Virus record (IMG/VR): IMGVR_UViG_3300009108_000051
Location: 1 to 24,454 of that record
DNA from: a virus
Strand: one strand, 5' to 3'
Length of the DNA stretch: 24,454 nt
Shown: positions 1-23,171 of the stretch, piece after piece
How the letters are laid out: each line of letters starts with the position of its first letter
Position numbering within the stretch: the stretch's first letter is position 1
Program-made: the position numbers and the translations under genes
The notes under the pieces: generated by a model
What the model saw: the letters and a program-made list of their open reading frames with translations, nothing else
What the model was told of the DNA's origin: nothing
Databases searched by the model: none

Positions 1-130
1 CCATCGCAGTGGCTACGTAGCTCTGGAAGCATCAAAAGACCTTTTAGATAGAGCAGGTTACAAGCCTCCTGATCGTTCACAGGTAGCGGTTGGTGGTGAG
101 GTAAGTATCAAGATTGACTTGGGGGGGTGA
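1..130 (+). CDS. Terminase small subunit, C-terminal end (partial)
   Basis: An open frame enters from the left edge (codons start at base 2) and stops with TGA at 128-130, giving the last 42 residues of a protein. The visible part reads as a helix containing ASKDLLDRAGYKPPDR, followed by a short beta-like tail ending SIKIDLGG. A C-terminal 'LLDRAGYKPP' element plus an acidic or hydrophobic tail is typical, from memory, of small terminase subunits of podoviruses, which recognise the packaging site and hand DNA to the large subunit. The position upstream of terL agrees, although three other genes lie between. The DNA-binding N-terminus is outside the window, so the call rests on a short tail and on context. 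Confidence 0.5.
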   Translation, partial: HRSGYVALEASKDLLDRAGYKPPDRSQVAVGGEVSIKIDLGG

Positions 131-142
131 AAATTCCTCCTT

Positions 143-160
143 GGTAATCACGTGATTCCC
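143..160. promoter_or_regulatory. Palindrome with CACGTG core in the intergenic gap
   Basis: Bases 146-157 form a perfect 12-bp palindrome (AATCACGTGATT), extending to 18 bp with one mismatch (143-160). It lies in the 88-base gap between the partial small terminase and the next gene. It is not followed by a T run, so it is a poor terminator and a better candidate protein-binding site. The gap also holds an AT-rich stretch (about 179-207) leading into a good ribosome site. Function is unknown. Confidence 0.35.
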
Positions 161-218
161 CACTACACACACAGGTCTTAAAAAAGGTCATTAACATATT
201 TTTTTAAGGAGAAGGTAA

Positions 219-410
219 ATGTCTGAGATAACGACTGTAGCTGATTTGAAGAAGCGTATGCGTTTAGTTGTAAATACGTTGACTAAGGACTACGATGGTT
301 TTAATCATCTGGATACTATTGGTAAGAAGCTAGATGAGGTTGAGAGTCTGGTTGATTATATGACTGATAAATTGGATATGAGGGCTAGTAGAAATGGCGG
401 ATCTTCATAA
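219..410 (+). CDS. Small hypothetical protein, 63 aa
   Basis: Not recognised. The ATG start follows a strong ribosome site (AAGGAG at about 207-212) in an AT-rich leader. The product is charged and almost certainly helical: LKKRMRLVVNTLTKDYDG, then a heptad-like segment LDTIGKKLDEVESLVDYMTDKLDM that could form a coiled coil. It has no signal peptide, membrane segment or cysteine. Its end overlaps the start of the 472-aa gene by 17 bases, which suggests translational coupling. It sits between small and large terminase genes, so a packaging or capsid accessory role is possible, but nothing in the sequence shows it. Confidence 0.7.
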   Translation: MSEITTVADLKKRMRLVVNTLTKDYDGFNHLDTIGKKLDEVESLVDYMTDKLDMRASRNGGSS

Positions 411-1812
411 AGCAGCGAGGGATAAAGCTGTCGAGCGGTTAGAGGTAGGTGGTGAGGCTAGAAGTATGTCCCAGCCTGAGTGGTTGGCTTCACAATATAC
501 TCCTGATACTACTGCTGTTCAGCATGGTGTAAGGCAGGGTTTGGCTAATGCTATGGCATTGCCTCAGTTTGTTATGGATCTGGCTGATGCTCCCAATACG
601 TTTATTAGTAATGTGTTGATGGGGAAGCCTAGGCAGGATTATCTTAGGCGGTTTGATGCTGCCAGCAGAGCTTATGGTAGGGATATTACAGGGGCTACTG
701 AGTATGAGGACTTTGCTCGCACTCCGGGGAATATAGCTGGTGATCTGTCCTTGCAGATAGGGACTGAGGTAATGATGCCTCTTGGTGGCGGCTATACTGC
801 ATTAAGAGGCCCGAAGAAAGCTAGGGATTTAGGGAATGGGGTAGTTGATTATCTTGATCCTGGGTTTGATGAGTCTCGTAGGCGGTTTGGAAAGAATGTA
901 GCGGTAGGGACAGCAGCAATGGCTCTTGGTATTCCAGCAGCAAAGAAGGCAGCTAGTTCAGTTAAAGCAGCCGCCAAACCTCCTGCTGGCAAGTGGGACA
1001 AGATTATAGATGAGATCTACGATGCAAAGGATCCTCTTAGTCGGCCAGAGGGAAGCACGTTTCTTCGTGGAGATGTGGATGAAATAGCACGGCTTTACCG
1101 TAGACAGAGAATGGCTGAGGAATACCAGTGGGACAACATTATCCCTAGTCAACATAAAGGAGAATACCACGTAGGAAGAAGGGATACTGTAGTGGGTCGT
1201 TGGGATCATGAGTACGATGTACGTCAAGCAATGGGGCCAGAGAATTATGATCGGTTAAAAGAGCTGGCTTATATGCCTGATTCAGGCTTGCCTAGAGACA
1301 TGAAAGATTTCAGAGCTACTCGTCTCGATGAAGTTAGTCGATTAGGTCGGCTTAAAGGAAAGGCTATTATAAAGGCCAATCAGCGGCAAGCTGATCTATT
1401 AACCCCCGAGAATCGCGAAATCTATCGCAAAATGAGCGAAGAAGCCTCAGAGCTATTCGTTAGGAAAATGATGGGTCGTAGCGACGACTTATTCGAGTCA
1501 TTCCCTCATGATCTAGACAAGCGGCTCAGATACCTTGATGATGAAATAACACGGCTTTTACGTACTGATCCCAACGTGAGCGCATACCGTAGACAGAGAG
1601 CTAAGGCTAGAGCTGCGGATATTGGGGATGAATTATATGAGAAAGAGCGTCTAAGGCTTCTCCGTAGAGAAACGGATGCAGAGTATATGTATAATACGGA
1701 TACTGTGTATGACGATTTTTACGATGCAGACTTCTCTCGTGCTAATCTTGATAAAGCTACATCCGCTCTTGAAAGACACTTGGACATTGGGAAACAGGTA
1801 GGTCTGGATTAG
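394..1812 (+). CDS. Unrecognised 472-aa protein between the terminase genes
   Basis: Not recognised. The ATG has a GAGGG ribosome site about 9 bases upstream, inside the previous gene. The N-terminal third is mixed; residues roughly 105-195 are small, glycine- and alanine-rich and partly hydrophobic (IGTEVMMPLGGGYTAL and later VAVGTAAMALGIPAAKKAA), resembling the amphipathic or membrane-active stretches of phage ejection proteins. The rest is highly charged, helical and Arg/Lys/Asp/Glu-rich. It contains an in-frame internal duplication: DEIARL-YRRQR (from residue 229) and DEITRL, nine extra residues, YRRQR (from residue 383). It could be an internal virion protein encoded away from the main ejection block, but this is inference. 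The end is odd: another frame stays open past its stop into the next gene. Confidence 0.75.
   Translation: MADLHKAARDKAVERLEVGGEARSMSQPEWLASQYTPDTTAVQHGVRQGLANAMALPQFVMDLADAPNTFISNVLMGKPRQDYLRRFDAASRAYGRDITGATEYEDFARTPGNIAGDLSLQIGTEVMMPLGGGYTALRGPKKARDLGNGVVDYLDPGFDESRRRFGKNVAVGTAAMALGIPAAKKAASSVKAAAKPPAGKWDKIIDEIYDAKDPLSRPEGSTFLRGDVDEIARLYRRQRMAEEYQWDNIIPSQHKGEYHVGRRDTVVGRWDHEYDVRQAMGPENYDRLKELAYMPDSGLPRDMKDFRATRLDEVSRLGRLKGKAIIKANQRQADLLTPENREIYRKMSEEASELFVRKMMGRSDDLFESFPHDLDKRLRYLDDEITRLLRTDPNVSAYRRQRAKARAADIGDELYEKERLRLLRRETDAEYMYNTDTVYDDFYDADFSRANLDKATSALERHLDIGKQVGLD
1078..1110 (+). repeat. Internal duplication, copy 1
   Basis: Bases 1078-1097 match 1540-1559 at 18 of 20 positions, and 1096-1110 (TACCGTAGACAGAGA) match 1585-1599 exactly, all in the same reading frame of the 472-aa gene. 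In copy 1 the two blocks are contiguous. Confidence 0.7.
1540..1599 (+). repeat. Internal duplication, copy 2 (with insertion)
   Basis: This is the second copy of the element at 1078-1110. Here the two matching blocks are separated by about 25 extra bases, which add nine residues (LRTDPNVSA) in frame. The high nucleotide identity suggests a fairly recent duplication followed by an insertion or deletion. Confidence 0.65.
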
Positions 1813-8826: not shown

Positions 8827-11022
8827 ATGAAACGGGTAAGAACTTTCCAGACCAATTTCTCGGCTGGACAACTTGACCCGTTAATGGCTTCTCGTACTGA
8901 TACGAAAGCGTATGTTAATGGGGCAGACACTCTAACAAACTTCTCTCCTCTTGTTCAGGGAGGAATTAAGAAAAGACCAGGTACAGTCTATCTTCAGGAC
9001 TTAACTGAAGCAGTAAGATTGATTCCTTTTATCTTTAATGAATCTCAGCTTTATATTATTGCTCTGGCTAACGCCAAGATGTATATCTATGGGGTTGATG
9101 GAACATTGCATCAGACAATATCTTCTGGCGTGCCATGGACTACAAGCAATCTTTATGAGGTTCGTTATACCCAGCGAAGTGATGTGATGATTCTTGTACA
9201 TGAGGATTTTGCTATGCAAAAACTCACCCGTACAGGGGCCACTACTTTTACTTTAGCTGATCTGGATTTTGAGACAGGGGATACTGGAAAGAAGTATGCT
9301 CCTTTCTATAAGTTTGCGGATAGTGATGTGACGATTGATGCTAATGGAACATCGGGGTCTATTACTTTAACAACATCAGCTAATCACTGGACTACAGATC
9401 ATGTAGGAGCAAGAGTTTCTATTCATGGACAGCAAGCAACAATTACCGGATACACTTCTGCTACTGTAGTTAGTGCTACAACAAATGAAGACCTGTTCAC
9501 AGACCAGACATTAACTGCTTCTGGTGGAGGATGTAACCAATTTGTTGTAGGCGAGGTTGTTACTCAGACAGATTCTCAGGCAGAGGGTGAGATTGTATCT
9601 GTAGATAGCGATACACAAATCACTGTTGCTAATCTGAAGAATGCCAAGTTCAAGACTAATGGGGCTAGTGAGCTAACTGTAGGTGGCGAGTCTGGTGCTG
9701 AAGTTACTGTAACAACTGTAGCTGATACTGCTACTCCTGAAGCTACAAAGGATTGGCAGGAAGAGGTGTTTAGTGATGAACGAGGATATGCCAGATCCGT
9801 AATCTTTCATAGTCAGAGACTATGGTTTGGTGGATCTAAGGAGCTTCCCGCACATTTGTTTAGTTCTGCTGTAGCAGACTTCTTTACTTTTGATGTAGGT
9901 ACTGCGCAGGATAGTGATAGTATTCAGGCTCCAATTGCCTCAGATCAGGTTAATAGCATTAACCATCTTGTATCAGCAGGGCATCTTCAGGTATTTACAG
10001 ATCAGGCAGAATTCTATTGTCCTGAATCTGAAAATTCCCCCTTGATTCCAGCAGACTTCAATATACGAAGACAAGCATCTTATGGAACAAGTGATGTACG
10101 TCCTGTTACTTTTGATCGTGCAACACTATTTGTTCAAGGGGCGGGTAAGGTTATTCGTGAGATGCGCTGGGAAGAGATTGAGGGTGGGTATACTCCTAAC
10201 GCAATCTCACTTATAGCTACCAATCTTATTGATGAGGATGGCATTAAGGATTCAGCCGTAGTTTATGGGATGGAAAAACGACCTGAACAGTTTGCTTTTT
10301 TTGTTAATGATGATGGAACGCTGCTTGTCTATCATGCTGCTAGAGCAGAAAATATCTCTGCATGGTTTAAGTGGGAGACTGATGGCCTGGTTAAAGATGT
10401 AGTAGCCATGGAAGAGAATTTGTATCTCTATGTAGAGCGTACTATTAATAGTGTTACAAAACATTACCTGGAGAGACTAGATGATTCAGTGACGCTGGAT
10501 TGTTCCAAATCTGTTACTAGCGGATCAGCTACAGCCACATTTTCAGGATTCACACATCTTGCACAAGAAGAGATCTCTGTTGTAGCAGATCATGAGCAAA
10601 CTTCTCATGCTGATTATCACAAAAATGCTTTCTATCTTGAAGAGTATACGCCTACTGCTGGTGGAGTAATTACCCTTACAGGTGGATATACTACTTATAC
10701 AATAACCGCAGGATTCAAATATACAGCAACCGCTAAGACTATGCCTATGGATTGGCAAGCTAGTGATGGACAGATTACTGGATTACCCAAAAGAATATCT
10801 GCTGTTGATATGGTTTTGGATAGTTCAATGGTTGCTAGTGTTGAGGGTAACTCACTACTTATGCGTGATGTTACAGATGATTTATCAAAACCACCTACTG
10901 CCAAAACAGGTAGATTCAGATTCTATCTGTTAGGATGGGATAAGGAGGGGCAGATAACAATGAGTTGTCCATGCCCACTAGAGATGACGTTACTAGGACT
11001 AATGATGGAGGTAGCATACTAA
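8827..11022 (+). CDS. Tail tubular protein B-like nozzle protein (T7 gp12-like)
   Basis: The 731-aa product (T7 gp12 is 794 aa) should form the tail nozzle, a hexameric beta-propeller-like tube. The conserved opening reads TFQTNFSAGQLDPLMASRTD, then YVNGADTLTNFSPLVQGGIKKRPGT. In the middle is a propeller-type region (RSVIFHSQRLWFGGSKELP, FTDQAEFYCPESE and FNIRRQASYGTSDVRPV). An insertion of beta-rich repeats at about residues 165-300 (GSITLTTSANHW) may decorate the outside. The end reads ITMSCPCPLEMTLLGLMMEV, a typical terminal strand. It shares one base with the next gene (TAATG), whose ribosome site lies within its last codons. Confidence 0.9.
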   Translation: MKRVRTFQTNFSAGQLDPLMASRTDTKAYVNGADTLTNFSPLVQGGIKKRPGTVYLQDLTEAVRLIPFIFNESQLYIIALANAKMYIYGVDGTLHQTISSGVPWTTSNLYEVRYTQRSDVMILVHEDFAMQKLTRTGATTFTLADLDFETGDTGKKYAPFYKFADSDVTIDANGTSGSITLTTSANHWTTDHVGARVSIHGQQATITGYTSATVVSATTNEDLFTDQTLTASGGGCNQFVVGEVVTQTDSQAEGEIVSVDSDTQITVANLKNAKFKTNGASELTVGGESGAEVTVTTVADTATPEATKDWQEEVFSDERGYARSVIFHSQRLWFGGSKELPAHLFSSAVADFFTFDVGTAQDSDSIQAPIASDQVNSINHLVSAGHLQVFTDQAEFYCPESENSPLIPADFNIRRQASYGTSDVRPVTFDRATLFVQGAGKVIREMRWEEIEGGYTPNAISLIATNLIDEDGIKDSAVVYGMEKRPEQFAFFVNDDGTLLVYHAARAENISAWFKWETDGLVKDVVAMEENLYLYVERTINSVTKHYLERLDDSVTLDCSKSVTSGSATATFSGFTHLAQEEISVVADHEQTSHADYHKNAFYLEEYTPTAGGVITLTGGYTTYTITAGFKYTATAKTMPMDWQASDGQITGLPKRISAVDMVLDSSMVASVEGNSLLMRDVTDDLSKPPTAKTGRFRFYLLGWDKEGQITMSCPCPLEMTLLGLMMEVAY

Positions 11023-11498
11023 TGAATCCAGCTACAGCAATGCTTGCGTCCACTGCTGTCAGTGCAGTCTCCTCTATTCAAGCTGGAAGATATGCCAAAG
11101 CAGCAGCGGAAGCTGAAGCACAGCAATATAAAGAACAGCAAGAGATGGCTAAGATTCAGGCATTGGAAGATGCAGCAGCTCGTGAAGCTGAAATGAATCG
11201 AATCAATAGTGCCAATCTTGCATTGGCGGCATCCAAAGGATATGAGCCTTGGGAGTCCGCTTCATTCCTTGCCTTACGTGAGGAAAATATAGAAGAGTCT
11301 CAATGGGATATTGCTGGAGTTCGATTGATGGGCCTGGCTAATGTTCGTAAATATGGATTAGGTGCATTTGAAAGTAAAATGAGTGGTAAGGCTGCCATGT
11401 GGTCAGCTTATGGTCAGGCTGGTTCTACGATGCTTGGTGGTTACTCCAAATGGAAACAGGCGCAAATTCCTGCCCCCGCTGCATCTGTAAATACCTGA
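11022..11498 (+). CDS. Internal virion (ejection) protein, T7 gp14-like
   Basis: A 158-aa protein. I take ATG 11022 as the start: GGAGGT (11007-11012) sits 9 bases upstream and the start overlaps the nozzle stop (TAATG). A longer in-frame version from TTG 10965 has no such support. The N-terminus is a hydrophobic helix (PATAMLASTAVSAVSSIQAG), followed by a long alanine-rich, charged coil (AKAAAEAEAQQYKEQQEMAK) and a helical SANLALAASKGYEPWESASF, then LANVRKYGLGAFESKM. This plan, with a small hydrophobic helix, helix-rich body and place before two very large proteins, matches T7 gp14, which is ejected into the outer membrane on infection. The identity of the function is by analogy. Confidence 0.82.
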   Translation: MNPATAMLASTAVSAVSSIQAGRYAKAAAEAEAQQYKEQQEMAKIQALEDAAAREAEMNRINSANLALAASKGYEPWESASFLALREENIEESQWDIAGVRLMGLANVRKYGLGAFESKMSGKAAMWSAYGQAGSTMLGGYSKWKQAQIPAPAASVNT

Positions 11499-11516: not shown

Positions 11517-14486
11517 ATGGCAAAGTTAGAACGATATGCAGTAAACAAAACCTCAGTAGTTAGACCTGTAGGGATTGTTCCTGCTACAAGTCTAAAGGCT
11601 TCAGCTAGAAGTATTCAGCAGTTTGCTCAAGTAGCAGATCAATTCTCTGATCTCTTTCAGGAGAAAGCATTAACAAAAGCTAGGCAGCAAGCGGAGCAGG
11701 ATGTTGTTACAACTCCTACTCAAAAGTATCAGGAGGCTTTTCTTGATACTGAGAATAGCTATGTGACTGATGCTAATGGTAATCCTGTTAATGCTGAATT
11801 TATATCTCAGATTCCTCGAAGAGATCCTGGATTATTTGATAATAAATACAATAAGACCTGGAATAATATTGCATCACAACGCAATGCTAATAACGCCACT
11901 CTAACTGCATGGGGTCAGATGGATGCGTGGCACGCAGATAGATTAGAAGATCTGGACTTTGGTCTCTTTGAGGCTACTAGCCAATCATACCTTGAGACAA
12001 CTCTTTCCAAGTTAGATCCTCGTATTCAGGCTTCTGTGGCTATGAAGCTGCAGCCTCGTCAGCAAACTCTTTATAACGATCTTCGTACAAAGAAAATTGC
12101 TAGAGATAGAAAGCTAAATAAAGAGGCAAGAGAAAGTACGATTAGTAGTTTCATGGGTCAGTTAGAGACAGGAATTCTTAATCACGGAATTGATGATCCT
12201 GGTCTACGGCAAATATACACGAATCTTGCTGATACAATCTATTCTGGTGTAACTGTTGGAGATTACCCTGTTGAAGCAGCAGTTAGAGCTCTGAATGATG
12301 CTGGGTCAAGATTGGCTCGTGGTCAACTAATTGGACAGATCAATGATATGCTACCTAATGGGATCTCTCCTGAAGAGGATCTTAAAATGGCTGAAATTAC
12401 CAGTGCTATTGGTATTGGTGATATTAAAGTAAAAACTCTACGCTTTGATCCTGAAAGCAAGTCTATTGCAGTAGAGGAGGTTTCTATATCTTCTCTAATT
12501 CCTGATGCCAAAGAGCGTAGATCTCTGGCTATTGATCTTAGTAATATTGCTGCAAGACAACGTGATCTAACTGTTAGCCATCAAAAACTAGAGGCTGCTG
12601 CTTGGCAAGATAGCATGGCAGAGTTTCAGAATATTGCCACAATTGCTACAAGGGATGGGGATACAGAAGCATATGATCGTGCTGTATCTGGTATTGCTGC
12701 CCTTGAAAGCAGCATCCGTACCTCAAATAATGAAGCTAAGGCTGATATGGTTCAAAAAACCCTTCAAGCTAGAGCATTTATCTATGAGCGTGGCGATATG
12801 GCCCAAACTGAAAGAGAGTATCTTGCCTCTCTACAGGAGATGGAAAATGCTCTTAAACCTGAATTGTTGGCTGCTGTTCCAGGATACTATCTTGATGAAG
12901 AAGATCGTAAGGCTTTTGTTTCAGGGCAGACATTAAGTAATCGTATAGAAAGACTGAAAGGGCAACATACAGTTTTATCTAACTATATTAAAGAATTAAG
13001 CAAGCCAGCCAAAGGGCAAGAAGAATTTGCTGGGTATATTCGTAACAGGACAGGCTCACTAAATCCTACTAAGGATGCCCGTAACTTTGCAGATCAATAC
13101 CTAAGAACCTATCATAATGTTGAAGAAATTGATTGGCAAGAAGGGGGATTCAGGGAGGCAATTAGTAAAGCTGCCCCTGTTCTGAGGACAGGTATTATTC
13201 CTCCATCTTTGGCTGCAGACTTAGTATCTGCTATCAGTTCTGGAGATGCTGAGAGAATTCAGAATGCCTACAAAGTCTATGAGTATATGGATAATCATCG
13301 TAAATTCCTTACCAAGGACAATGTTAAAAACCAGATTGGTAATGAGGCATTTCGTACATATGAATACATGAGATCAGCTATTGAGCTAGCTGGCACATTC
13401 CCTACTGATGTTAATTTCCTAGAGAGGGTGCAGAAAGTATTCAATGGAGAGACACGTCTGCATTGGAAGGATCTTGACAGGGAAGCTAGAGATGCTGCTA
13501 CTGGATATATTGATGAGCAATTAGACCCTTGGTTTGGTTTTGATAAACCCCGATTCCCTAATAAGATGCGAAATGAGCTTTACTCTATTATTCCTGAGAC
13601 CTATGAAGAGGCAGAAGGAGATATGCCGTCAGCAGGTAGACAGGCTGCTGAGTTAGCTTATGACAGAATTACCAAAACCCGTTGGGGGCATGGTGATCCT
13701 TTTATGTTTGGGGAAGGATGGACAGAGTACCCTGTATCAAAAGCGTACCCTAAATTATCACAACAAGCTGTTAAGAATTTTGTACGGTTTGAGATTCAAG
13801 ACAGAACAGATGGTGATTATCTATTTGCTCCTAATGAGGCTGCTCCTGTAGGAACAGGAACAAAACTAATATTTCATCGTATGGGGAGAGATGGTCAGCC
13901 TGTCTATAAGTTAGTAAGGAATAATGTAGAAAATATTGTAGGGCAAGATCTGATTGGTACAGAAGTTCTGGATAGAGATGGTCATATTGTAGAAATTGAT
14001 CTGCGCCCCTTGAGTCGTGAAGTCTCAATAATCCGTAATGGTATTACTAAAACAGATCAAGCACTTGAGGCTATGACCAATATGTACTGGAGGAATCCAA
14101 CTCCAGAGGTACGTGCTGATATAGAGGCTCTTGTAGTAATACGCAATGCAATGACTCGTCATCCGCAAACGTCTGTCCCTGTAGGGCCAATTGATATTGA
14201 TTGGCATGATGAATCACCAATGGGCGGGAAGCCTGGGATTAGAGCTATTGACAGACTTCCTAGTGAGTGTCCTCCAGGATACCGGATGGGGCCAAAAGGA
14301 TGTTACCGAGTAGCGACAAAGGGTATTCATCGCACAGAATTAGGTGAACGTACTACCCAAAAGATTCCTGCAAAAGATAGAAAGGATCTTGCAGGGCATT
14401 ATGATAGCTGGGTTACAGGACAAAAGTATTCCGAGCTACCTGTGAAAAGTTTTGACTGGTGGTACTTTAACAAGTACAAGAAATAA
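11517..14486 (+). CDS. Internal virion (ejection) protein, T7 gp15-like
   Basis: A 989-aa helical protein (T7 gp15 is 747 aa). It starts AKLERYAVNKTSVVRPVGIV and then has a strong amphipathic helix (SLKASARSIQQFAQVADQFS) of the type used to build the ejection tube. Most of the body is helical, with repeated Gln/Glu-rich stretches and no membrane segment or signal. The segment NNATLTAWGQMDAWHADRLEDLDFGLF and the long coil around residues 340-420 agree with periplasmic-tube proteins. Near the end it has two cysteines in CPPGYRMGPKGC and a basic end (WWYFNKYKK). It ends 2 bases before the next gene. The assignment is by order, size and composition; sequence similarity to gp15 itself is expected to be weak. 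Confidence 0.8.
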   Translation: MAKLERYAVNKTSVVRPVGIVPATSLKASARSIQQFAQVADQFSDLFQEKALTKARQQAEQDVVTTPTQKYQEAFLDTENSYVTDANGNPVNAEFISQIPRRDPGLFDNKYNKTWNNIASQRNANNATLTAWGQMDAWHADRLEDLDFGLFEATSQSYLETTLSKLDPRIQASVAMKLQPRQQTLYNDLRTKKIARDRKLNKEARESTISSFMGQLETGILNHGIDDPGLRQIYTNLADTIYSGVTVGDYPVEAAVRALNDAGSRLARGQLIGQINDMLPNGISPEEDLKMAEITSAIGIGDIKVKTLRFDPESKSIAVEEVSISSLIPDAKERRSLAIDLSNIAARQRDLTVSHQKLEAAAWQDSMAEFQNIATIATRDGDTEAYDRAVSGIAALESSIRTSNNEAKADMVQKTLQARAFIYERGDMAQTEREYLASLQEMENALKPELLAAVPGYYLDEEDRKAFVSGQTLSNRIERLKGQHTVLSNYIKELSKPAKGQEEFAGYIRNRTGSLNPTKDARNFADQYLRTYHNVEEIDWQEGGFREAISKAAPVLRTGIIPPSLAADLVSAISSGDAERIQNAYKVYEYMDNHRKFLTKDNVKNQIGNEAFRTYEYMRSAIELAGTFPTDVNFLERVQKVFNGETRLHWKDLDREARDAATGYIDEQLDPWFGFDKPRFPNKMRNELYSIIPETYEEAEGDMPSAGRQAAELAYDRITKTRWGHGDPFMFGEGWTEYPVSKAYPKLSQQAVKNFVRFEIQDRTDGDYLFAPNEAAPVGTGTKLIFHRMGRDGQPVYKLVRNNVENIVGQDLIGTEVLDRDGHIVEIDLRPLSREVSIIRNGITKTDQALEAMTNMYWRNPTPEVRADIEALVVIRNAMTRHPQTSVPVGPIDIDWHDESPMGGKPGIRAIDRLPSECPPGYRMGPKGCYRVATKGIHRTELGERTTQKIPAKDRKDLAGHYDSWVTGQKYSELPVKSFDWWYFNKYKK

Positions 14487-14488
14487 TC

Positions 14489-17400
14489 ATGGCTGAAGAT
14501 CCTAGCGAAAAACTACTAACTGCAATTCCTGGGTTTTATCCTCCAGGTCAGGAGAGAGAGCTTGTTGGTGTATCGGGTGAATATGATCCGATGGATAATT
14601 TTTTTCGCTCTGTCATGGTCGATACCTGGGTGGGAGAGCTTGGATTAGCTGCCTCAGCTAAAGCAGAGGCTATGCAAGCTATGGGGAGATGGGAGGATGA
14701 TCCTTACTATAATCCTCTATTAGATGCTGATAATGAAGGTTATGAGCGATTTGTGATGGATTCTCGTTCTCCAGGCGAAAGCTATTATTTCCGCACTCTT
14801 GCTGACAAGAACATTATGCTCAAGAGAGAACTAGAGGTTGGTGGTGCTGGATGGAGTAGATTTCTCTCCGCATTTGTAGACCCTGTTACTTATGTGCCTA
14901 TTCCTATAGCAAAGGGGTTAGGGTTTGTTAAAGGCATGAAGAAGACTGCCATGCCTGTACTTGGAAGCGTATCGGCTTCAGAAGTTACTCGACATAAACT
15001 AGATCCAACATCAACCTTTGAAGAGACTGCGATTGCTATTGGTGCAGGTACTATCTTAGGTACTGCATTAGGTGGTTTCTCTGGTCATGTAGGGCGTAGA
15101 GCTGGAGGTGCCGGACATGGTGGCGTTGGTTCTGTTCGTGCTATTGGAGACAGACTGAACAATATCTTCAGAAGATCTGATTCAGAGATTAAACCTGTAG
15201 TCCAGAAAGCTGTATCAGAGGTTATTTCTGATGCTGAAACAGGGCTTGCCCAACAGGGTTATAAGTTGATTGCTGGCGAGACAGAGAATCTTGCTCAAGC
15301 TTCTGGTAAGAGAATGGAGGTCAGATTTGATGAGGCTAAGATCCGAGAAGACTATAGAACTGGGTTCAATTATCTGAGAGGTATTGGTACTGGAGCTGCC
15401 AAACAGAAAGAAAAAGTCTTTGAGGATATAGATCTAGTCAAGTTAAAGGATTGGTTTGATCGTCATGGTGGAGAGGATAAGTATGTAGAGTTTATTCTTG
15501 AGCATGAGTTAGCCCATATTAAGTTAGGTCATGCAGGGAGAGGTGTATATCCTGAAGATCGAATGAGTCCTGTAGCTATTGAGTTTGAGAGAGCTGCAAA
15601 TGAAATTGCTTTTGAGAAGATTGGTCTTGATACAGCCCAAATTCAAAAGATTATTATTCCTGAAGAGGTTCTGGATACGCAGGCTAAAGCTGCTCAACGA
15701 CTAAAAACCAGAGAGAAGTCTGCTATTACTCTGAAAGAAGGGGCTAAACAGCGTAGAAAAGAAGCCAAAGAGATCCGTAAACGTGCTGAGACAAGAGGCA
15801 GTAAATCATGGCGCACTCAGGATATTAACAAGGCAGGGGCATTAGAGCGTGAGGCTGAGAAGATGGAGAGTAGGATTGCTCCCATTGAACAATCTATGCG
15901 TGGTATGCGTGATGATCTGGAGAACATTAGTTCCAGAATCAAGGATCTTGAGTCTATAGATGATATAGATGCTCTGGCTCTCAAAAGTGCTATGGGTCTT
16001 GAGAAGATGAACATTTCTCAGATGCCTTGGTATCTTCTCAAGAATACAAAGCTCAAAGATATTGCTCCTCATCTTGCTGCAGATTGGATGAAGCTGGCTC
16101 ATGAGATTGCTGGCTCACCAGGATTGACTATTGAGGGGGCTAGAGAGGGGGTTGCTCCTCCTATCTCTGTAGAGATGCTGGCTAAACAGTGGCTCTATCC
16201 TTACCGTACTGCAATGGAGACAACCGATAAGATCTATTTGGATTATATTGGTAAAGCTGGTGCAACTAGAGGACAGGTTGTAAGCGAGAAGAGTATACAG
16301 TTCTTTGGTAAAAAACCTCCAGAGGGTAAGGTTAAGATTGATGAGTTTAGAAAATCAGTTGGCCGTGCCTTGATGAACAATGATCGTCCAACGAATGACC
16401 CTCACATTGATGAGGCTGTTCGTGCATGGCGAGAGGTGTTCATTAAGTTTGAAGATGCTGCTAAAGAGACAGGAGTGTTTCAATCTACTAGAAGAGCAAA
16501 ACAGAATGTTGAGTATTGGAAAGCTAGGGTTGATGAGGCTAGGGCTACTGGCAAAGATCCAGAGGCCGCTCTGTTCCAGCTAGATGAGGCTGAGTCTCTT
16601 GTTGAGCTACTGAAGAATTCAGAGGGTAGAGAGGGGCGTAAATACTTTCATCGCATGTGGCGCATGGATGCGATCACTAAAAATGAAGATGCTTTTACTG
16701 ATAAATTAAGAACGCACTTTCGGAAGAATCCTTATGTATGGGTAGGTGGTAAACTGGAAAGGCTCTCTCTGGATGAGGTTAATCTTGAGGCTAGAGTTAG
16801 AGAGACTGTAGCCACAATCAAGAAAGAAGCTACCTTCAATGATACGATTGGAATTATGGAGAAGGGTGATCGTACTGCCAATACTCAAAACCGTATCGAG
16901 CAATTAAAACGAGAGATAGAGACTGTAGGAAATAAAGAGATTATTCCTGGTGTCTCTGCCAGAGAGGTTAAAGAGGCTCAGATTCGTAATTTGGAAGAGC
17001 AGTTAAAGAAGGGCAAGACTAAGGGAGTTGGTGGCCCTAGCCCCTTGTTAGTCAGAAAACTTGATATTGATGACCATGACTTTGCTGAGTTCTTGGAGCA
17101 GGATATTGATATTGTAGGCCAGCATTATGTAATGAAAATGGCTCCTGTTATTGAGATGGCTCGTAAGTTTGGAGACTTTCGTATTGAGTCAAGAATGGAG
17201 GAGCTTACTCGTCTGATTGATGATGAGATTGCAGCTAATCCTCACTTAGAAAAAGCTCTAACAAAAGAGAAAGCGAGACTTGTTCAGGCTACAGAAGATC
17301 TCCGAGATAAGGTTCTTGGTGTATTTGGTGTGCCTGATAATCCCGATGCGCTTCATGTGAAAGTTCTTCGTAATCTAAAGGCGTGGAATGTTCTTGCTTT

Positions 17401-18550
17401 GATGGGTAAGGCTTGGATGGCAGCTTTGGCCGATGGTGGCCGAGTAGTTATGTCTGAAGGGTTTGGTAATACCTTTGGCGGTCTTGTTAAGAATATGACA
17501 GATCGCCTAGAGAAAGGCCCAGCATCCGAATGGTATAAAGGTGGTCTTGAGGTTGAGCAAGCGGGGGAGGCTTTAGATGTTACTACGGCTACTCGTATGC
17601 ACCAAATCTCAGATATTGGTGGTGGTTATCATGGAATGGGTAAATTGGAAAAGTGGATTCACCAACAGACAGGGCCATTCTTCTTTGTAAATCTTCTCTC
17701 TGTATGGACTGACAACGCAAAGAGATTTGCAGGTACGATGATTCAATCCAGAATGATTGAGGATTCTATTAAATGGACTAAAGGCGAGCTTCCAGTGGAG
17801 AGGATTGAAAGGCTTGCAGCAGTAGGTATTGATCTTGATTGGGCAAAGAGAGTGGTTCGTCAATGGGAAGAAGCAGGTTCTCAGAAAGGAGAATCTTTAT
17901 TCCTGGCCAATACTGCGGAATGGTCAGACCAGGAAGCGGTGCGTACCTTTAGAGCTATTCTAGCTACAGAAGTAAATAACGCAGTAATTACTCCTGGTGC
18001 TGCGGATAAGTTTAACTTTATGTCTAAGCCCCTTGGTTCCGTACTTATGCAGTATAGAGGTTTTGGACTCTCCGCTACTCAGCGTATTATGATGAGTGCT
18101 TTGCAGCAAAAGGATAAGAGTGCATTAGCTGGTATTACTAGCATGATTGCCCTGGCTGCTGCGGTAGATTATGCAAGAAGACCTGATTGGGTTGAGCTGG
18201 ATACTAAAGATATTATCTTTAGATCAGTTGAAAGATCTGGTATAACGGGTATATTCTCAGATATAAATAGTGCTATCGAGATGGCAAGCGGGGGTGAACT
18301 GGGATTAAGACCAGTTATGGGCGTGGATCAAGTTATAAAAGATCCTAATTGGGCACAGAGAACAGGCGCACCACTTGGCCCTGTTGCATCACAATGGTTG
18401 CAGTTTGCTTATGCTTTATCAGATAGCGGAGCTACAGGAAATGAACAAGCAAGAGCAATTAGGTATATGCTTCCATATCAGAACTTGTGGTTTTGGTCAG
18501 ATACCTGGACTAGAGCGCAAAGAACACTTGCCGAAGAACTTGAGGAATAG
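14489..18550 (+). CDS. Large internal virion (ejection) protein, T7 gp16-like, with zincin-like motif
   Basis: A 1353-aa protein (T7 gp16 is 1318 aa), last of the three ejection proteins. Such proteins enter the cell with the DNA and form the inner-membrane part of the channel. Visible parts: acidic N-terminus; hydrophobic segments (TAIAIGAGTILGTALGG, about 182-200; VLALMGKAWMAALADGG; ITSMIALAAAVDYA); HELAHIKLGH at 339-348 followed by EFERAANEIAFEKIG at 365-379, a pattern of HExxH metallopeptidases of the ImmA/IrrE type; then coiled-coil regions rich in Lys, Arg and Glu (about 400-500). The C-terminus has a conserved-looking GPFFFVNLLSVWTDNAKRFAG. No transglycosylase motif like that of T7 gp16's N-terminus could be identified by eye. 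Confidence 0.82.
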   Translation: MAEDPSEKLLTAIPGFYPPGQERELVGVSGEYDPMDNFFRSVMVDTWVGELGLAASAKAEAMQAMGRWEDDPYYNPLLDADNEGYERFVMDSRSPGESYYFRTLADKNIMLKRELEVGGAGWSRFLSAFVDPVTYVPIPIAKGLGFVKGMKKTAMPVLGSVSASEVTRHKLDPTSTFEETAIAIGAGTILGTALGGFSGHVGRRAGGAGHGGVGSVRAIGDRLNNIFRRSDSEIKPVVQKAVSEVISDAETGLAQQGYKLIAGETENLAQASGKRMEVRFDEAKIREDYRTGFNYLRGIGTGAAKQKEKVFEDIDLVKLKDWFDRHGGEDKYVEFILEHELAHIKLGHAGRGVYPEDRMSPVAIEFERAANEIAFEKIGLDTAQIQKIIIPEEVLDTQAKAAQRLKTREKSAITLKEGAKQRRKEAKEIRKRAETRGSKSWRTQDINKAGALEREAEKMESRIAPIEQSMRGMRDDLENISSRIKDLESIDDIDALALKSAMGLEKMNISQMPWYLLKNTKLKDIAPHLAADWMKLAHEIAGSPGLTIEGAREGVAPPISVEMLAKQWLYPYRTAMETTDKIYLDYIGKAGATRGQVVSEKSIQFFGKKPPEGKVKIDEFRKSVGRALMNNDRPTNDPHIDEAVRAWREVFIKFEDAAKETGVFQSTRRAKQNVEYWKARVDEARATGKDPEAALFQLDEAESLVELLKNSEGREGRKYFHRMWRMDAITKNEDAFTDKLRTHFRKNPYVWVGGKLERLSLDEVNLEARVRETVATIKKEATFNDTIGIMEKGDRTANTQNRIEQLKREIETVGNKEIIPGVSAREVKEAQIRNLEEQLKKGKTKGVGGPSPLLVRKLDIDDHDFAEFLEQDIDIVGQHYVMKMAPVIEMARKFGDFRIESRMEELTRLIDDEIAANPHLEKALTKEKARLVQATEDLRDKVLGVFGVPDNPDALHVKVLRNLKAWNVLALMGKAWMAALADGGRVVMSEGFGNTFGGLVKNMTDRLEKGPASEWYKGGLEVEQAGEALDVTTATRMHQISDIGGGYHGMGKLEKWIHQQTGPFFFVNLLSVWTDNAKRFAGTMIQSRMIEDSIKWTKGELPVERIERLAAVGIDLDWAKRVVRQWEEAGSQKGESLFLANTAEWSDQEAVRTFRAILATEVNNAVITPGAADKFNFMSKPLGSVLMQYRGFGLSATQRIMMSALQQKDKSALAGITSMIALAAAVDYARRPDWVELDTKDIIFRSVERSGITGIFSDINSAIEMASGGELGLRPVMGVDQVIKDPNWAQRTGAPLGPVASQWLQFAYALSDSGATGNEQARAIRYMLPYQNLWFWSDTWTRAQRTLAEELEE

Positions 18551-18553
18551 ATA

Positions 18554-20767
18554 ATGGCACACATAACGATCCCGGATACCACACCTTATATTCAATATAC
18601 GGTTGGTAGCGCATCTACAACAGATTTCACAATACCTTTTGCTTACTTTGCAGATGCAGACATTGTTGTTTATGTAGACAGCGCATTACAAACAATCACC
18701 ACTGATTATACTATTGCCGGAACAGCAGTAGATGAGGGATATAGTGGAGGCACAGTTACTTTAACATCAGGCGTAACCAATGTAACAGTAACAGTCTATA
18801 GAGATGTGGGGGTAGCCAGAACTACAGATTTCCCCACTAATGGCCCATTCAATATCACGCAGTTAAATACAGAACTGGATACCATTACTGCACAGATAGG
18901 ACAGAATGAAACAGCAGCAACAAGGGCTATTCATCAGTCCTGGTCAGATACAGCTACAGACATGGAACTACCTGCTGCAGCGACTAGGGCAACATACGCA
19001 CTAGGCTTTGATGCCAACGGTGATGTAGCAGTAACCTCCTCAACCATTGCAGAGATTGATGGAGCGGTAGGGGCAGCACTAGGTTCTGGCGTACTGGCAA
19101 CCTCTTATCAATTCACAGGTGATGGTTCTACAGTAGCATTTACGATCACTGGAGCCATTACAGATATTCCTAATGAGCAATCGGTGATTGTAGATATTGA
19201 TGGTATTACTCAGCACACAGATACATATACTGCTTCTGGCACTACAGTAACCTTCACTACTGCACCACCTGATAATAGTGACATTCAGGTTCGCTATAAC
19301 GCCTATCTAGGGGATGCAACTACAGCGCAGGGTGTCACCTACAATCAGGGTGGCACAGGCGCACAGAGTAGAACAGTAGAGAACAAGCTACAAGAGTCAG
19401 TATCAGTTAAAGACTTTGGTGCTGTGGGTGATGGCACTACAGATGATACTGCGGCTATACAGGCGGCTATTGATGCCAATACTCAATCCGTTATTTATTT
19501 TCCTAGTGGTACTTATAAAATCACAAGCACCATTCAACTTGATACAAATGTTTTTTTGCAAGGCGAAGTTTATAACTTTAGCGGTACACAGATTGTGCCA
19601 TACGATTGTGCCGCATTTAAAATTGATGGTGATCTAGTTGATGGGGGGTTTGCTTTTAATATTCGTATTAAAGATATGTTTATCAACTGTACGAATGTAA
19701 CGAATGCACAAGATTACATAATATACTTAAACGATGCTTATCGTTGTAACTTAGAAAATATACGCATCCAAAATGTTACTGTTTCCTCAAGTCATGTGGC
19801 GGCTATTGTTAAGGTTCGAGGCACAAACTACGTTAATCGACTCAAAGAAGTTTATGCTATTGGCGCAGGCAATACTGGCTCTGGCTCCGGTTTTGATATT
19901 AATGTTGGTAAAGGCAATTTGGTTTTACAGCACTGTGATAGTGAAAACGTAAATCGTGGGTTTTTGATTTCAATGAATAGCCAAGTTGACATAATTTCAC
20001 CGTATTGTGAAAGGGCCGGCCAAAGCATTCGAATCGAACCAGCAACACTAACAAGTAACGGCCAGCCTCAGCTAAATGTTTTTGGCGGGTTTGTTGATCT
20101 TCCTTCGTCTGGATCATCCGGTGTTATTTTTAATGGCACCTTTAACAAGGATGAAATAATAAATTTTTATGGTTTCCGTGTTGGCTCAAACGATCATTCT
20201 ACAAAGAAAACTGCATTTAACACGGGCGGTTTAACTTGGAGTAATGACAATCGCATTAATATCAACGGCTTCGATTGGTCATGGGTAAGTAAACCTGATG
20301 GGCTTAGAACAGCCGCATACATTACACCCGATAATCCATATTTAAATACTGCTCAGAATAAAGAAGAGCATATATTTAAGATTACAAGTCTTGCTGATAA
20401 TACTGCAACAGATGTTTTTAAGATTGAAGGCATGACAACAGGCAGTCCATATCCACCTGTTTACCTCAAGGTTCGAGTTTATGAAAGTTTCAACGGATGG
20501 GGTCGTGCGCTTGAAGAAAGTGTATTTTTGATCCAAGACAGATCGGCTCAAAGTGCATTTACTACGACAAAGCAATCTATTGCGTCAGTTCAAGAAGCGG
20601 ACAGTGCTAACTTCTCAATTACAACACTTGAAATATCGGCAACAGAAAATTCTGACAATGTAACATTCAGTGTTACGTCTGACTTTAACACAGCGATTCT
20701 TTCAACCATGTCAGAAGTTTACTTTTATGTGACTATGGTTGGGACTGGCAAGCTAACACTTTTGTAA
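18554..20767 (+). CDS. Tail fibre/tailspike: T7-type anchor fused to a beta-helix domain
   Basis: This 737-aa protein joins the tail to the receptor. Residues about 8-165 are the T7 gp17-like N-terminal anchor: YTVGSASTTDFTIPFAYF, VTVYRDVGVARTTDFP, FNITQLNTELDTITAQIGQN. Residues about 183-250 are a second beta-rich module (YQFTGDGSTVAFTI to IQVRYNAYLG). From residue 285, VKDFGAVGDGTTDDTAAIQA starts a pectate-lyase-3-like right-handed beta-helix, the fold of enzymatic or binding spikes. The C-terminus (IETTLEISATENSDNV type strands, ending GTGKLTLL) is beta-rich. The base use after about 19480 looks different from the anchor, suggesting a swapped receptor-binding end. It has no S74 chaperone of its own. 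Confidence 0.85.
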   Translation: MAHITIPDTTPYIQYTVGSASTTDFTIPFAYFADADIVVYVDSALQTITTDYTIAGTAVDEGYSGGTVTLTSGVTNVTVTVYRDVGVARTTDFPTNGPFNITQLNTELDTITAQIGQNETAATRAIHQSWSDTATDMELPAAATRATYALGFDANGDVAVTSSTIAEIDGAVGAALGSGVLATSYQFTGDGSTVAFTITGAITDIPNEQSVIVDIDGITQHTDTYTASGTTVTFTTAPPDNSDIQVRYNAYLGDATTAQGVTYNQGGTGAQSRTVENKLQESVSVKDFGAVGDGTTDDTAAIQAAIDANTQSVIYFPSGTYKITSTIQLDTNVFLQGEVYNFSGTQIVPYDCAAFKIDGDLVDGGFAFNIRIKDMFINCTNVTNAQDYIIYLNDAYRCNLENIRIQNVTVSSSHVAAIVKVRGTNYVNRLKEVYAIGAGNTGSGSGFDINVGKGNLVLQHCDSENVNRGFLISMNSQVDIISPYCERAGQSIRIEPATLTSNGQPQLNVFGGFVDLPSSGSSGVIFNGTFNKDEIINFYGFRVGSNDHSTKKTAFNTGGLTWSNDNRININGFDWSWVSKPDGLRTAAYITPDNPYLNTAQNKEEHIFKITSLADNTATDVFKIEGMTTGSPYPPVYLKVRVYESFNGWGRALEESVFLIQDRSAQSAFTTTKQSIASVQEADSANFSITTLEISATENSDNVTFSVTSDFNTAILSTMSEVYFYVTMVGTGKLTLL

Positions 20768-20904: not shown

Positions 20905-21651
20905 ATGTACAATAACGGAAACTCAAGTAAGAACGTAACAGGCTCATCAGTAGTTGATGGTACGTTAGAGAACGCAGACTTTCCAGATGATACTATTAGT
21001 GGTGATAAGATTGATGGTGGTACTATCTCTGACTTCGCCTCTACTGGTATTGATGATAATGCTACCTCTACTGCTATTACTATTGATAGCAGTGAGAACG
21101 TAGGTATTAACGGCAAATTAACAAGTACATCTACTAGCAACGGTACTTGGGGCAGCGTTTCAGTTGGCACAGATTACGCTAAATCCACCAGAGTAACAAG
21201 TGGTGCGGGATATGTTGATTTCTTTTATACAGGCACAGGCTCTACGTACGCTGGCTATATTTATGCTAGTGGTGGAACAACAACTTATGCTACTGCATCA
21301 GACTATCGTTTAAAAGAAAACGTAGTGCCTATGACAGGTTCTATTGATAGATTAAAGAACCTTAGTCCAAGTAAGTTCAACTTTATCGGTGAAGATAGAA
21401 CAGTAGACGGTTTCCTAGCACACGAAGCACAAGAGGTAGTACCTGAATCAGTACACGGCACTAAAGATGCTATGACTGCTGAAGTATTATATACAGCAGA
21501 CGATGAATTACCAGAAGGTAAAAATATAGGCGATGTTAAAGAGGCATCAGTACCAGAATATCAAGGAATTGACCAGTCTAAACTTGTACCTTTATTAGTG
21601 TCAGCATTACAAGAAGCTATCGCAAGAATTGAAACACTGGAGAACGCATAA
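20905..21651 (+). CDS. Fibre protein with C-terminal S74 intramolecular chaperone
   Basis: A 248-aa protein. Residues 1-125 are repetitive, Gly/Ser/Thr-rich fibre sequence (GTLENADFPDDTISGDKI, TSTSTSNGTWGSVSVGTDYA). From residue 132 it has SDYRLKENVVPM, the hallmark of the peptidase S74 chaperone domain: S132 and K137 correspond to the Ser-Lys pair of self-cleaving endosialidase-type domains, with cleavage between residues S and D expected. The C-terminal LVPLLVSALQEAIARIETLENA is the usual terminal coil of the domain. It probably trimerises and folds a short fibre, then releases itself. It overlaps the next spike by one base (TAATG). No ribosome site stronger than TAGGAAAT lies before ATG 20905. 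Confidence 0.85.
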   Translation: MYNNGNSSKNVTGSSVVDGTLENADFPDDTISGDKIDGGTISDFASTGIDDNATSTAITIDSSENVGINGKLTSTSTSNGTWGSVSVGTDYAKSTRVTSGAGYVDFFYTGTGSTYAGYIYASGGTTTYATASDYRLKENVVPMTGSIDRLKNLSPSKFNFIGEDRTVDGFLAHEAQEVVPESVHGTKDAMTAEVLYTADDELPEGKNIGDVKEASVPEYQGIDQSKLVPLLVSALQEAIARIETLENA

Positions 21652-23171
21652 TGGCATTAACGAAAGCAACAAATAGAATGACGGATGGCGCACCAGTCAA
21701 TGTTAGAGACTTTGGCGCATTGGGTGATGGGGTCACAGATGACAGAACTGCCATTCTAAACGCTTGGATATATTGTTTAGCAAATAGTAAAGATATGTAT
21801 TTCCCTAGTGGAACTTATGTAAATGAAACATATAGTATGCCTATGGGTAGAGTCGATGGCTCTGCACCTTCTTCATTGCTTGATTGTAAAAACATAACGG
21901 TGTTTGGCGATGGTAGATCAACCATATTAAAGACTAAAAGTGCTGCGGGTGCGGACGTATTACAGATTAACGGTGCTAAGAATTTTCACGTTAGAGACTT
22001 ATCAATCACAGCAGAGCTAACTGGTTCAGCAGGTGCTGGTTCTAATGCTGTATCTTTTACAGGAGGTGGTGATAACATCACTCTTGAAAATGTGTATGCT
22101 TTTGACTTACCTTATTTGGAGAAGCCTGCTTCTCTTGATGGCGGTAAAGGGTTTACATTTCAAATGACTAACATTGCTCCAGAATTAGGAACTATAACTA
22201 TACAAAACTGTATCGCTAAAGGTTGTGTATATGGTTTTGATGTAAACCCTACACTTGATGATATTGTTAATGAGAAGGGTGCTATTAATATTGACGGTAT
22301 TGCAGAGGACTGTTGGTACGGATTTATAGCAGGCTCTCCAGGATCAGGTGTAGCTATTCCATCAGGATATAATTCAGGTACAAATATCAAAGGAACTGCT
22401 ATTAATTGTCAGCACAGTGTTACTCTATGGCGATTACACGGTGGTGATTACGATATTAATATTGTCAACAATAAGACAAAGGCTAATTTAGAGCTTGACC
22501 CTAATGGTAGCGCTTGGTCGACTACATTAAATACAGGTGTTGATGGCTTGGTATGTACTTACGTCCATAACGCTAGAATCTCAGTCTATGGTTATGCTAA
22601 TAATGTTGACTATAAAGCGAGGATTGGCGGCGCAAGTGCTGGTTCGAGTGGATTAACTGGTGCTACAAGCAACTGTCAGATATACCTAGATATTAGTGGT
22701 ACAGCAGACACAGCAGATATTACTGCTGTTAACTCAGGTGGCAATATTATGAGTGATTGTGTTTTATATGTTTCTACCACCACAACGTCTAGTGCTATTC
22801 CTGTTACTCTATATACAGCAGTATATAACAACACAATAACTAAAGGTTCTGCTAGAAGAGTTATAAACACAACAGTTGAAGGCTCACTTGACTTTACATA
22901 CACAGACGGTTATACCAGCTATAACAAAATAGAGCGTGATGGTCTTGCTTTATATACTAGTCAGAATGGCGGCTCTTCACCAAACCTTGCAGTCTCTGGA
23001 GTAAAAGATAACAACGGCACTAAAGTTATGACAGTTTACAATAATGGTGCAATAGGCACAGCAGCTCTAAACACAGCAACATCAGTGTCCACAATAATTA
23101 AGGCTATGCCTATTTACGATAACGCTGGCAATATTGTAGGATATGTTCCAGTTTACACAAGCTTTTCATAA
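21651..23171 (+). CDS. Second tailspike-type protein with beta-helix (pectate-lyase-3-like)
   Basis: A 506-aa protein starting at residues ALTKATNRMTDGAPVNVRDF, a short joint that often opens secondary tail spikes, then GALGDGVTDDRTAIL and YFPSGTYVNETYS, the first turns of a right-handed beta-helix. The following SLLDCKNITVFGDGRSTIL and many regular short strands (NITLENVYAFDL, GTITIQNCIAKGC) fit the fold. The end carries GTKVMTVYNNGAIGTAA and VGYVPVYTSFS, a beta-rich tip. No large anchor domain is present, so it should attach to another spike or to the fibre through its short N-terminus. No catalytic residues could be placed by eye. The gene and its upstream neighbour contain very few GATC sites compared with the rest. 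Confidence 0.8.
   Translation: MALTKATNRMTDGAPVNVRDFGALGDGVTDDRTAILNAWIYCLANSKDMYFPSGTYVNETYSMPMGRVDGSAPSSLLDCKNITVFGDGRSTILKTKSAAGADVLQINGAKNFHVRDLSITAELTGSAGAGSNAVSFTGGGDNITLENVYAFDLPYLEKPASLDGGKGFTFQMTNIAPELGTITIQNCIAKGCVYGFDVNPTLDDIVNEKGAINIDGIAEDCWYGFIAGSPGSGVAIPSGYNSGTNIKGTAINCQHSVTLWRLHGGDYDINIVNNKTKANLELDPNGSAWSTTLNTGVDGLVCTYVHNARISVYGYANNVDYKARIGGASAGSSGLTGATSNCQIYLDISGTADTADITAVNSGGNIMSDCVLYVSTTTTSSAIPVTLYTAVYNNTITKGSARRVINTTVEGSLDFTYTDGYTSYNKIERDGLALYTSQNGGSSPNLAVSGVKDNNGTKVMTVYNNGAIGTAALNTATSVSTIIKAMPIYDNAGNIVGYVPVYTSFS

What the first reader, a model, noticed from the sequence alone, without database searches (positions are those of the whole stretch)
15503..15625. Zinc-protease signature inside an ejected virion protein
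HELAHIKLGH at 339-348 followed by EFERAANEIAFEKIG at 365-379 has the HExxH plus downstream E/xxANE(F/I)A layout of ImmA/IrrE-type metallopeptidases. T7 gp16 carries a wall-cutting transglycosylase instead. A protease carried with the DNA into the cell could cut a host repressor, a defence protein or a wall or membrane component at the earliest moment of infection.
Basis: partly seen in the sequence, partly recalled or inferred. Interest (0 to 1): 0.62.

Follow-up and report, generated by a model that had tools for sequence, protein, structure and literature searches.

The report
Zinc-protease-like domain in phage injection protein
A marine phage protein that is probably injected into the host with the viral DNA carries a small zinc-protease-like domain; the same domain recurs in dozens of related phage proteins, but several lineages, including the nearest relative, have lost the catalytic residues, so it looks real, and whether it cuts anything is unproven.

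Summary
The motif is exactly where stated: HELAHIKLGH at residues 339-348 and EFERAANEIAFEKIG at 365-379 of a 1353-aa T7 gp16-like ejection protein (window 14489-18550). It is not chance. The region aligns with a phage domain family that I recovered here and that Pfam does not model (consensus '..FVl.HEkaHt..kgESkadYENRINe.AL'). HExxH is intact in 31 of 42 non-redundant members. In gp16-like proteins the domain sits either between the first membrane segment and the C-terminal core (as here) or inserted at one point of that core. By T7 topology both places face the host cytoplasm. The window's own match is weak alone (E about 0.01) but register-perfect, and its sister protein (L002) is a clear though degenerate member. 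Catalytic residues were lost at least three times, including in L002 and the pelagiphage Hodr clade, so proteolysis is expendable in some lineages. It is not a demonstrable ImmA/IrrE (M78) member: the Pfam score is below cut-off and no solved-structure match was found. The best structural neighbours are viral 'polyvalent' and N4-type RNA-polymerase proteins. Zincin-like domains in injected phage proteins were predicted in 2017, so this is a new variant of a known theme. Function is untested.

The parts
14489..18550 (+). gp16-like ejection (internal virion) protein, 1353 aa
   Evidence: phrog_342 E=7e-55, phrog_16310 E=4.5e-68; ORF
14495..15109 (+). N-terminal module, residues 3-207, homologous to the T7 gp16 297-408 region (inside T7 'TMH I', 243-410)
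   Evidence: HMM of homologues matches the window 3-207 and T7 gp16 297-408; T7 topology from PMC8954989
15272..15643 (+). zincin-like domain, about residues 262-385
   Evidence: hhalign to the intact-family profile E=7e-5 in exact register; AF2 pLDDT 80.5, pTM 0.71 for residues 263-419; viral Foldseek hits probability 1.00
15503..15517 (+). HExxH (H339, E340, H343): predicted metal ligands and general base
   Evidence: sequence; aligned with the family HExxH
15581..15625 (+). downstream Glu helix EFERAANEIAFEKIG; E367 aligns with the E of family 'YENRIN' (predicted third ligand), N371 with the invariant N
   Evidence: alignments; helix in the model
17054..18496 (+). conserved gp16-C core, residues 856-1336; matches T7 gp16 795-1144
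   Evidence: HMM
17930..17932 (+). residue 1148, equivalent of the second zincin insertion point used in L068, L088, L093, L096 (no insert in this window)
   Evidence: the core HMM is split at about position 284 in those four; 284 maps to window 1148 and T7 1066
10965..11498 (+). gp14-like internal virion protein (longest ORF given; the real start may lie inside)
   Evidence: phrog_418 E=1e-12
11517..14486 (+). gene in the gp15 position, 989 aa, no family match
   Evidence: position between gp14-like and gp16-like genes; no Pfam or PHROG hit

Best explanation
Residues about 262-385 form a compact zincin-like metallopeptidase domain of the kind found in phage 'polyvalent' injected proteins. It is inserted between the first membrane segment and the C-terminal body of a T7 gp16-like ejection protein. 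Well supported here: the domain family, its register with HExxH + E367 + N371, and its position in gp16-like proteins. Inferred: that it binds a metal, is proteolytically active, travels in the virion and, by T7 gp16 topology, ends up on the cytoplasmic side of the host inner membrane. Most likely job (inference, weakly preferred): limited proteolysis at or just after ejection, cutting the ejection proteins themselves (cis or neighbour) to release or remodel the gp16-C part. The activity is optional, because sister lineages keep the domain with dead catalytic residues.
For: Composite motif 0.015% by shuffling, and all 28 pattern hits in 342,547 aa belong to one family. hhalign of an independent 8-row intact profile against the window: E=7e-5, exact register. 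BLAST of the window against L054, a gp16-like protein with intact HExxH: 31% over residues 328-410. The sister protein L002/L014 (54% identity over the protein, 63% over the C-terminal core) carries a family domain at the same place, HMM E=8e-9. 31 of 42 non-redundant family members keep HExxH. AF2: window domain pLDDT 80.5, family member L054 pLDDT 88 with strands, then a helix, the HExxH helix and the Glu helix. Foldseek viral: probability 1.00 to an ART-PolyVal protein, an unnamed 1012-aa protein (TMq 0.65) and a podovirus 'RNA polymerase' (TMq 0.58). Two placements, after the TMH I-like module and at core position ~284 (T7 ~1066), both fall in the part modelled as cytoplasmic in T7. Precedents: processing of P1 DdrB and MPTase domains in injected proteins (PMC5512222); HExxH C1 domain of N4 vRNAP (PMC12633501).
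Against: The window's own sequence scores weakly: HMM E=0.011 at Z=1000, although above all 500 shuffles, and Pfam M78 below cut-off. No solved zincin is matched by Foldseek for the window or L054 model or by profile. Catalytic residues are lost in at least three groups, including the sister protein. No direct evidence of virion location, metal, cleavage or substrate exists. The model shows only a small beta part for the window domain, and no coordinates were available to measure ligand geometry.
Confidence: 0.5

Rival explanations
1. Host-directed effector: the domain is an active protease that cuts a host cytoplasmic or inner-membrane protein (for example a defence protein) right after entry.
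For: The predicted cytoplasmic placement holds at both insertion sites. The domain region is far more diverged from the sister protein than its flanks (10-18% against about 40-50% identity), as expected of an arms race or of domain swapping. Iyer et al. list effector action as one option.
Against: No defence family match. No target is known. Lineages keep a dead domain instead of deleting it, which is odd for a pure effector.
Confidence: 0.22
2. Structural or binding domain: the zincin fold serves as a spacer or docking module of the ejection protein. Catalysis is vestigial or dispensable, and the intact HExxH of the window is a leftover.
For: The domain is kept with non-catalytic residues in L002, in the pelagiphage Hodr clade of 10 (KKE in place of the HE), and in L089. 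In N4 the region with the MPTase is required for encapsidation (PMC5512222).
Against: HExxH, the E and the N are intact in 31 of 42 non-redundant members across deep lineages. Vestigial motifs would decay. Gp16-like proteins of many phages lack the domain altogether.
Confidence: 0.22
3. Separate domain swap: the window's domain is an M78/M48-type zincin acquired independently at the same site, not a divergent member of the YENRIN-type family.
For: Only the window's domain among 16 members touches Pfam M78 (E 0.012) and M48 (0.036). The region is much less like the sister protein than its flanks.
Against: Scores are below curated cut-offs. The N-terminal strand and helix (MEVRFDEAKIREDYRTG) and the E...N register also align with the family. 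No PDB M78 fold match.
Confidence: 0.15
4. Another HExxH metal enzyme rather than a peptidase (for example a YbeY-like hydrolase or an alpha-ketoglutarate-HExxH enzyme).
For: The L054 model's best plausible PDB neighbour is TM1509 (probability 0.44, TMq 0.43), which I recall as a YbeY-family protein. PMC12633501 notes that HExxH also occurs in non-protease enzymes.
Against: The match is not significant (E 0.86). The conserved third candidate ligand is Glu, as in gluzincins. No third conserved His in the family.
Confidence: 0.06

Closest known systems
Zincin-like MPTase domains of phage/plasmid polyvalent proteins (Iyer et al. 2017, PMC5512222)
   Same: HExxH helix plus Glu helix in a large protein delivered with DNA; found at varied positions of the host protein, sometimes in two copies (L026 has a degenerate and an intact copy).
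   Different: The family here has its own signature (KaWTkP..GV.PLp..F......FV..HE..H...ES..dYENRIN), is not modelled in Pfam, sits in T7 gp16-like ejection proteins, and shows repeated active-site loss. Whether it is one of that paper's 12 clades could not be checked.
Phage N4 virion RNA polymerase C1 domain (HExxH; PMC12633501)
   Same: HExxH domain in an ejected podovirus protein; a podovirus 'RNA polymerase' is among the best viral fold matches (TMq 0.58).
   Different: No RNA polymerase here; the carrier is a gp16-like DNA-ejection protein; no sequence match was shown.
T7 gp16 (internal virion protein with transglycosylase)
   Same: Same TMH I-like and gp16-C modules and same gene order after a gp14-like gene.
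   Different: Lacks the N-terminal transglycosylase found in T7 and carries the zincin-like domain between the two modules.
ImmA/IrrE (Peptidase_M78)
   Same: HELxH...ExxAN spacing.
   Different: Score 15.8 against a cut-off of 22; no IrrE structure match; carrier and context differ.
Pelagibacter phage EXVC031P Hodr gp16-like protein
   Same: Homologous protein with the same domain at the same site; nearest isolate by terminase (61%) and portal (52%).
   Different: Catalytic residues degenerate: no HExxH, KKE instead.

Membership tests
Zincin-like metallopeptidase (polyvalent MPTase type) | HExxH on one helix followed by a Glu on a second helix | tested here: met
   Sequence, model helices 67-86 and 99-115 of the modelled segment, alignment
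Zincin-like metallopeptidase (polyvalent MPTase type) | three-stranded beta sheet with an N-terminal helix before the two C-terminal helices | tested here: inconclusive
   Window model has two short strands and helices; family member L054 has five short strands; no significant solved-structure match
Zincin-like metallopeptidase (polyvalent MPTase type) | part of a protein delivered with phage DNA | tested here: inconclusive
   gp16-like by homology; no virion proteomics
Zincin-like metallopeptidase (polyvalent MPTase type) | binds a metal and cleaves peptides | not testable with these tools
   needs purified protein
The family recovered here (YENRIN-type zincin of ejection proteins) | significant profile match | tested here: inconclusive
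   hhalign E 7e-5 single comparison; HMM E 0.011 at Z=1000; sister L002 E 8e-9
The family recovered here (YENRIN-type zincin of ejection proteins) | same position in a gp16-like protein | tested here: met
   after the N-terminal module and before the core, as in L048, L054, L081, L082
ImmA/IrrE, Peptidase_M78 | Pfam PF06114 score at or above the curated cut-off 22 | tested here: not met
   15.8 bits, E 0.012
ImmA/IrrE, Peptidase_M78 | fold match to solved IrrE/ImmA | tested here: not met
   no such hit among the listed Foldseek PDB matches
T7 gp16-like ejection protein | homology to T7 gp16 TMH I and C-terminal regions | tested here: met
   phrog_342; HMM matches T7 297-408 and 795-1144
T7 gp16-like ejection protein | N-terminal transglycosylase (phage-specific in T7) | tested here: not met
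   no lysozyme/transglycosylase hit in P0001 or its neighbours

The most novel reading that the evidence does not exclude
A so far unmodelled zincin protease family that T7-type ejection proteins place at either end of their cytoplasmic part, so that the DNA-injection machine carries its own protease into the host cytoplasm to switch itself off or disable a host protein, with repeated evolution of dead versions.
Probability: 0.3. Interest if true: 0.7.

Novelty: new variant of a known kind. Interest (0 to 1): 0.45.

Why it matters
T7-type ejection proteins are known for a wall-cutting and a DNA-handling part; a protease carried on the cytoplasmic side would add an enzymatic step to DNA entry for which I found no test in the literature searched. 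The family gives natural pairs of active and dead versions (window and L002; L026 and the pelagiphage Hodr clade), and Hodr has been isolated, so the role of catalysis can be tested. It also supplies a profile for a domain that Pfam and PHROGs do not name.

Tried and rejected
Chance motif: rejected. ImmA/IrrE membership: not met. Pfam, PHROGs, PADLOC and PDB sequence searches gave no significant hit for the domain. The window domain alone finds no phage-collection relative (best E 0.2) and only its own identical copy in viral contigs. A first hhalign against a mixed, mostly degenerate profile was poor for the window (E 0.05); the intact-only profile resolved it. PDB fold searches of both models gave no zincin. 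A scan of 84,980 bacterial and archaeal genomes found no member, so no prophage context or host was obtained. L021 was scored 'active' in the tree table by its HEAVH motif, which is not this family's domain; it does not affect the degenerate count. Literature searches for a protease in T7-type ejection proteins found none, though the library lacks most subscription journals.

Full report
Observation. The ORF at 14489-18550 (+) encodes a 1353-residue protein. HELAHIKLGH is at 339-348 (15503-15532) and EFERAANEIAFEKIG at 365-379 (15581-15625), as reported. HExxH alone turns up in 2.3% of shuffles of this protein, and HExxH with a downstream ExxxNxxA in 0.015%. Over 342,547 aa of non-redundant ORFs from all fetched loci, all 28 hits of the composite pattern are the window or one homologous family. 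The motif is real and not chance.

The carrier. The window is a podovirus structural module: a Head-tail_con portal, a capsid, a T7-type scaffold, a gp14-like protein, a 989-aa gene in the gp15 place, this gene, then tail-fibre genes. The protein matches phrog_342, 'internal virion protein with endolysin domain' (E 7e-55), and phrog_16310. HMMs built from homologues match its residues 3-207 and 856-1336, and T7 gp16 at 297-408 and 795-1144. No lysozyme or transglycosylase was found in it or in the neighbours tested. The nearest isolate is Pelagibacter phage EXVC031P Hodr: terminase 61%, portal 52%, gp16-like protein 27.5%. That the protein is packaged and ejected is an inference from T7 gp16.

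The domain family. A relative with 54% identity (L002/L014, 63% over the C-terminal core) lacks HExxH. A distant gp16-like protein (L026) has an intact, similar domain, and searches from it reached a family in viral contigs. Its consensus is about 'I.iD...l...F..KaWTkPk.eGVkPLpe.qFKT.eeW..FV..HEkaHt......ES.adYENRINe.AL'. Of 42 non-redundant members, 31 keep HExxH; ten have degenerate sites and one (L098) is an unclear fragment. Pfam has no model for it. The window's domain fits in exact register: H339, E340, H343, E367 and N371 align with the family H, E, H, E and N. The statistics for the window alone are modest: hhalign E 7e-5 for one comparison, HMM E 0.011 at Z=1000 but above all 500 shuffles, and BLAST 31% over residues 328-410 to L054. 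The sister L002 matches clearly (E 8e-9) at the same position, which supports common descent of the window's domain. The 201-400 stretch is 10-18% identical to the sister against about 40-50% in most of the N-terminal flank and 38-84% in the C-terminal core, so fast divergence or replacement by a related domain are both possible.

Structure. AlphaFold2 gives the window segment (residues 263-419) pLDDT 80.5 and pTM 0.71, with the HExxH helix and the Glu helix among the best predicted parts. Family member L054 gives pLDDT 88 and pTM 0.80, with strands, a helix, the HExxH helix and the Glu helix. Foldseek finds no solved zincin for either. Among viral predicted structures the first three hits have probability 1.00: an ART-PolyVal protein, an unnamed 1012-aa protein (TMq 0.65) and a podovirus RNA polymerase (TMq 0.58). 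ART-polyvalent and N4-type RNA-polymerase proteins are among the classes in which Iyer et al. described zincin-like domains. Ligand geometry could not be measured.

Placement. In the window, L002, Hodr, L048, L054, L081 and L082 the domain follows the N-terminal module within about 50-145 residues. In L068, L088, L093 and L096 it splits the C-terminal core at HMM position about 284, equivalent to window residue 1148 and T7 residue 1066. In T7, residues 243-410 are membrane segment I, 411-1118 cytoplasmic and 1119-1290 membrane segment II (PMC8954989). Both sites would therefore be cytoplasmic after ejection if topology is conserved. This is an inference and argues against a cell-wall substrate.

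Loss of catalysis. On a tree of the C-terminal core the window and L002 are sisters (support 100/100) with opposite states. Degenerate domains need three changes: L002, a pelagiphage clade of ten, and L089. The pelagiphage form keeps the general-base E and the ENR.N signature but has KKE in place of the HE. Catalysis is therefore expendable in some lineages while the domain is kept.

Mechanism. I prefer limited proteolysis at or just after ejection, acting on the ejection proteins themselves. P1 DdrB, which carries such a domain, is processed (PMC5512222), and two different placements in one carrier suit local cutting. A host-directed effector and a structural role are each nearly as likely. 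The family and position are well supported; metal binding, proteolysis, packaging and targets are inferred.

Known work. Iyer et al. (2017) predicted zincin-like domains in injected phage proteins, and a 2025 preprint shows an HExxH C1 domain in N4 vRNAP. A review of ejection proteins mentions no protease. The finding is a new variant of a known theme, with a Pfam-unlisted family in T7 gp16-like proteins.

Noticed in passing
L026 residues 930-1105 (protein also in L047, L066): A 2136-aa gp16-like protein with two copies of the domain in tandem, one degenerate and one intact, plus a match to phrog_289 'GTP-binding domain' at 598-727.
   Followed up: partly
L068, L088, L093, L096: The zincin domain is inserted into the gp16-C core at one and the same point in four lineages; close relatives (L029, L031-L037) lack it.
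   Followed up: yes
L069, L071: Very large proteins carrying the domain together with a PD-(D/E)XK nuclease match (L069, 4206 aa) or an N-terminal phage lysozyme match (L071, 2334 aa).
   Followed up: no
L021-L023 residue 865: A 2672-aa gp16-like protein carries a different HExxH stretch (THEAVHAL) between the same two modules.
   Followed up: no
window 18554-20767 and 21651-23171: Two tail proteins with pectate-lyase-like (Pfam PF12708) domains; the first has a T7 tail-fibre N-terminus.
   Followed up: partly
window 20905-21651: Short tail protein ending in an intramolecular chaperone (Peptidase_S74) domain.
   Followed up: partly
window 394-1812: 472-aa protein upstream of the terminase with no Pfam, PHROG or PADLOC match.
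   Followed up: partly
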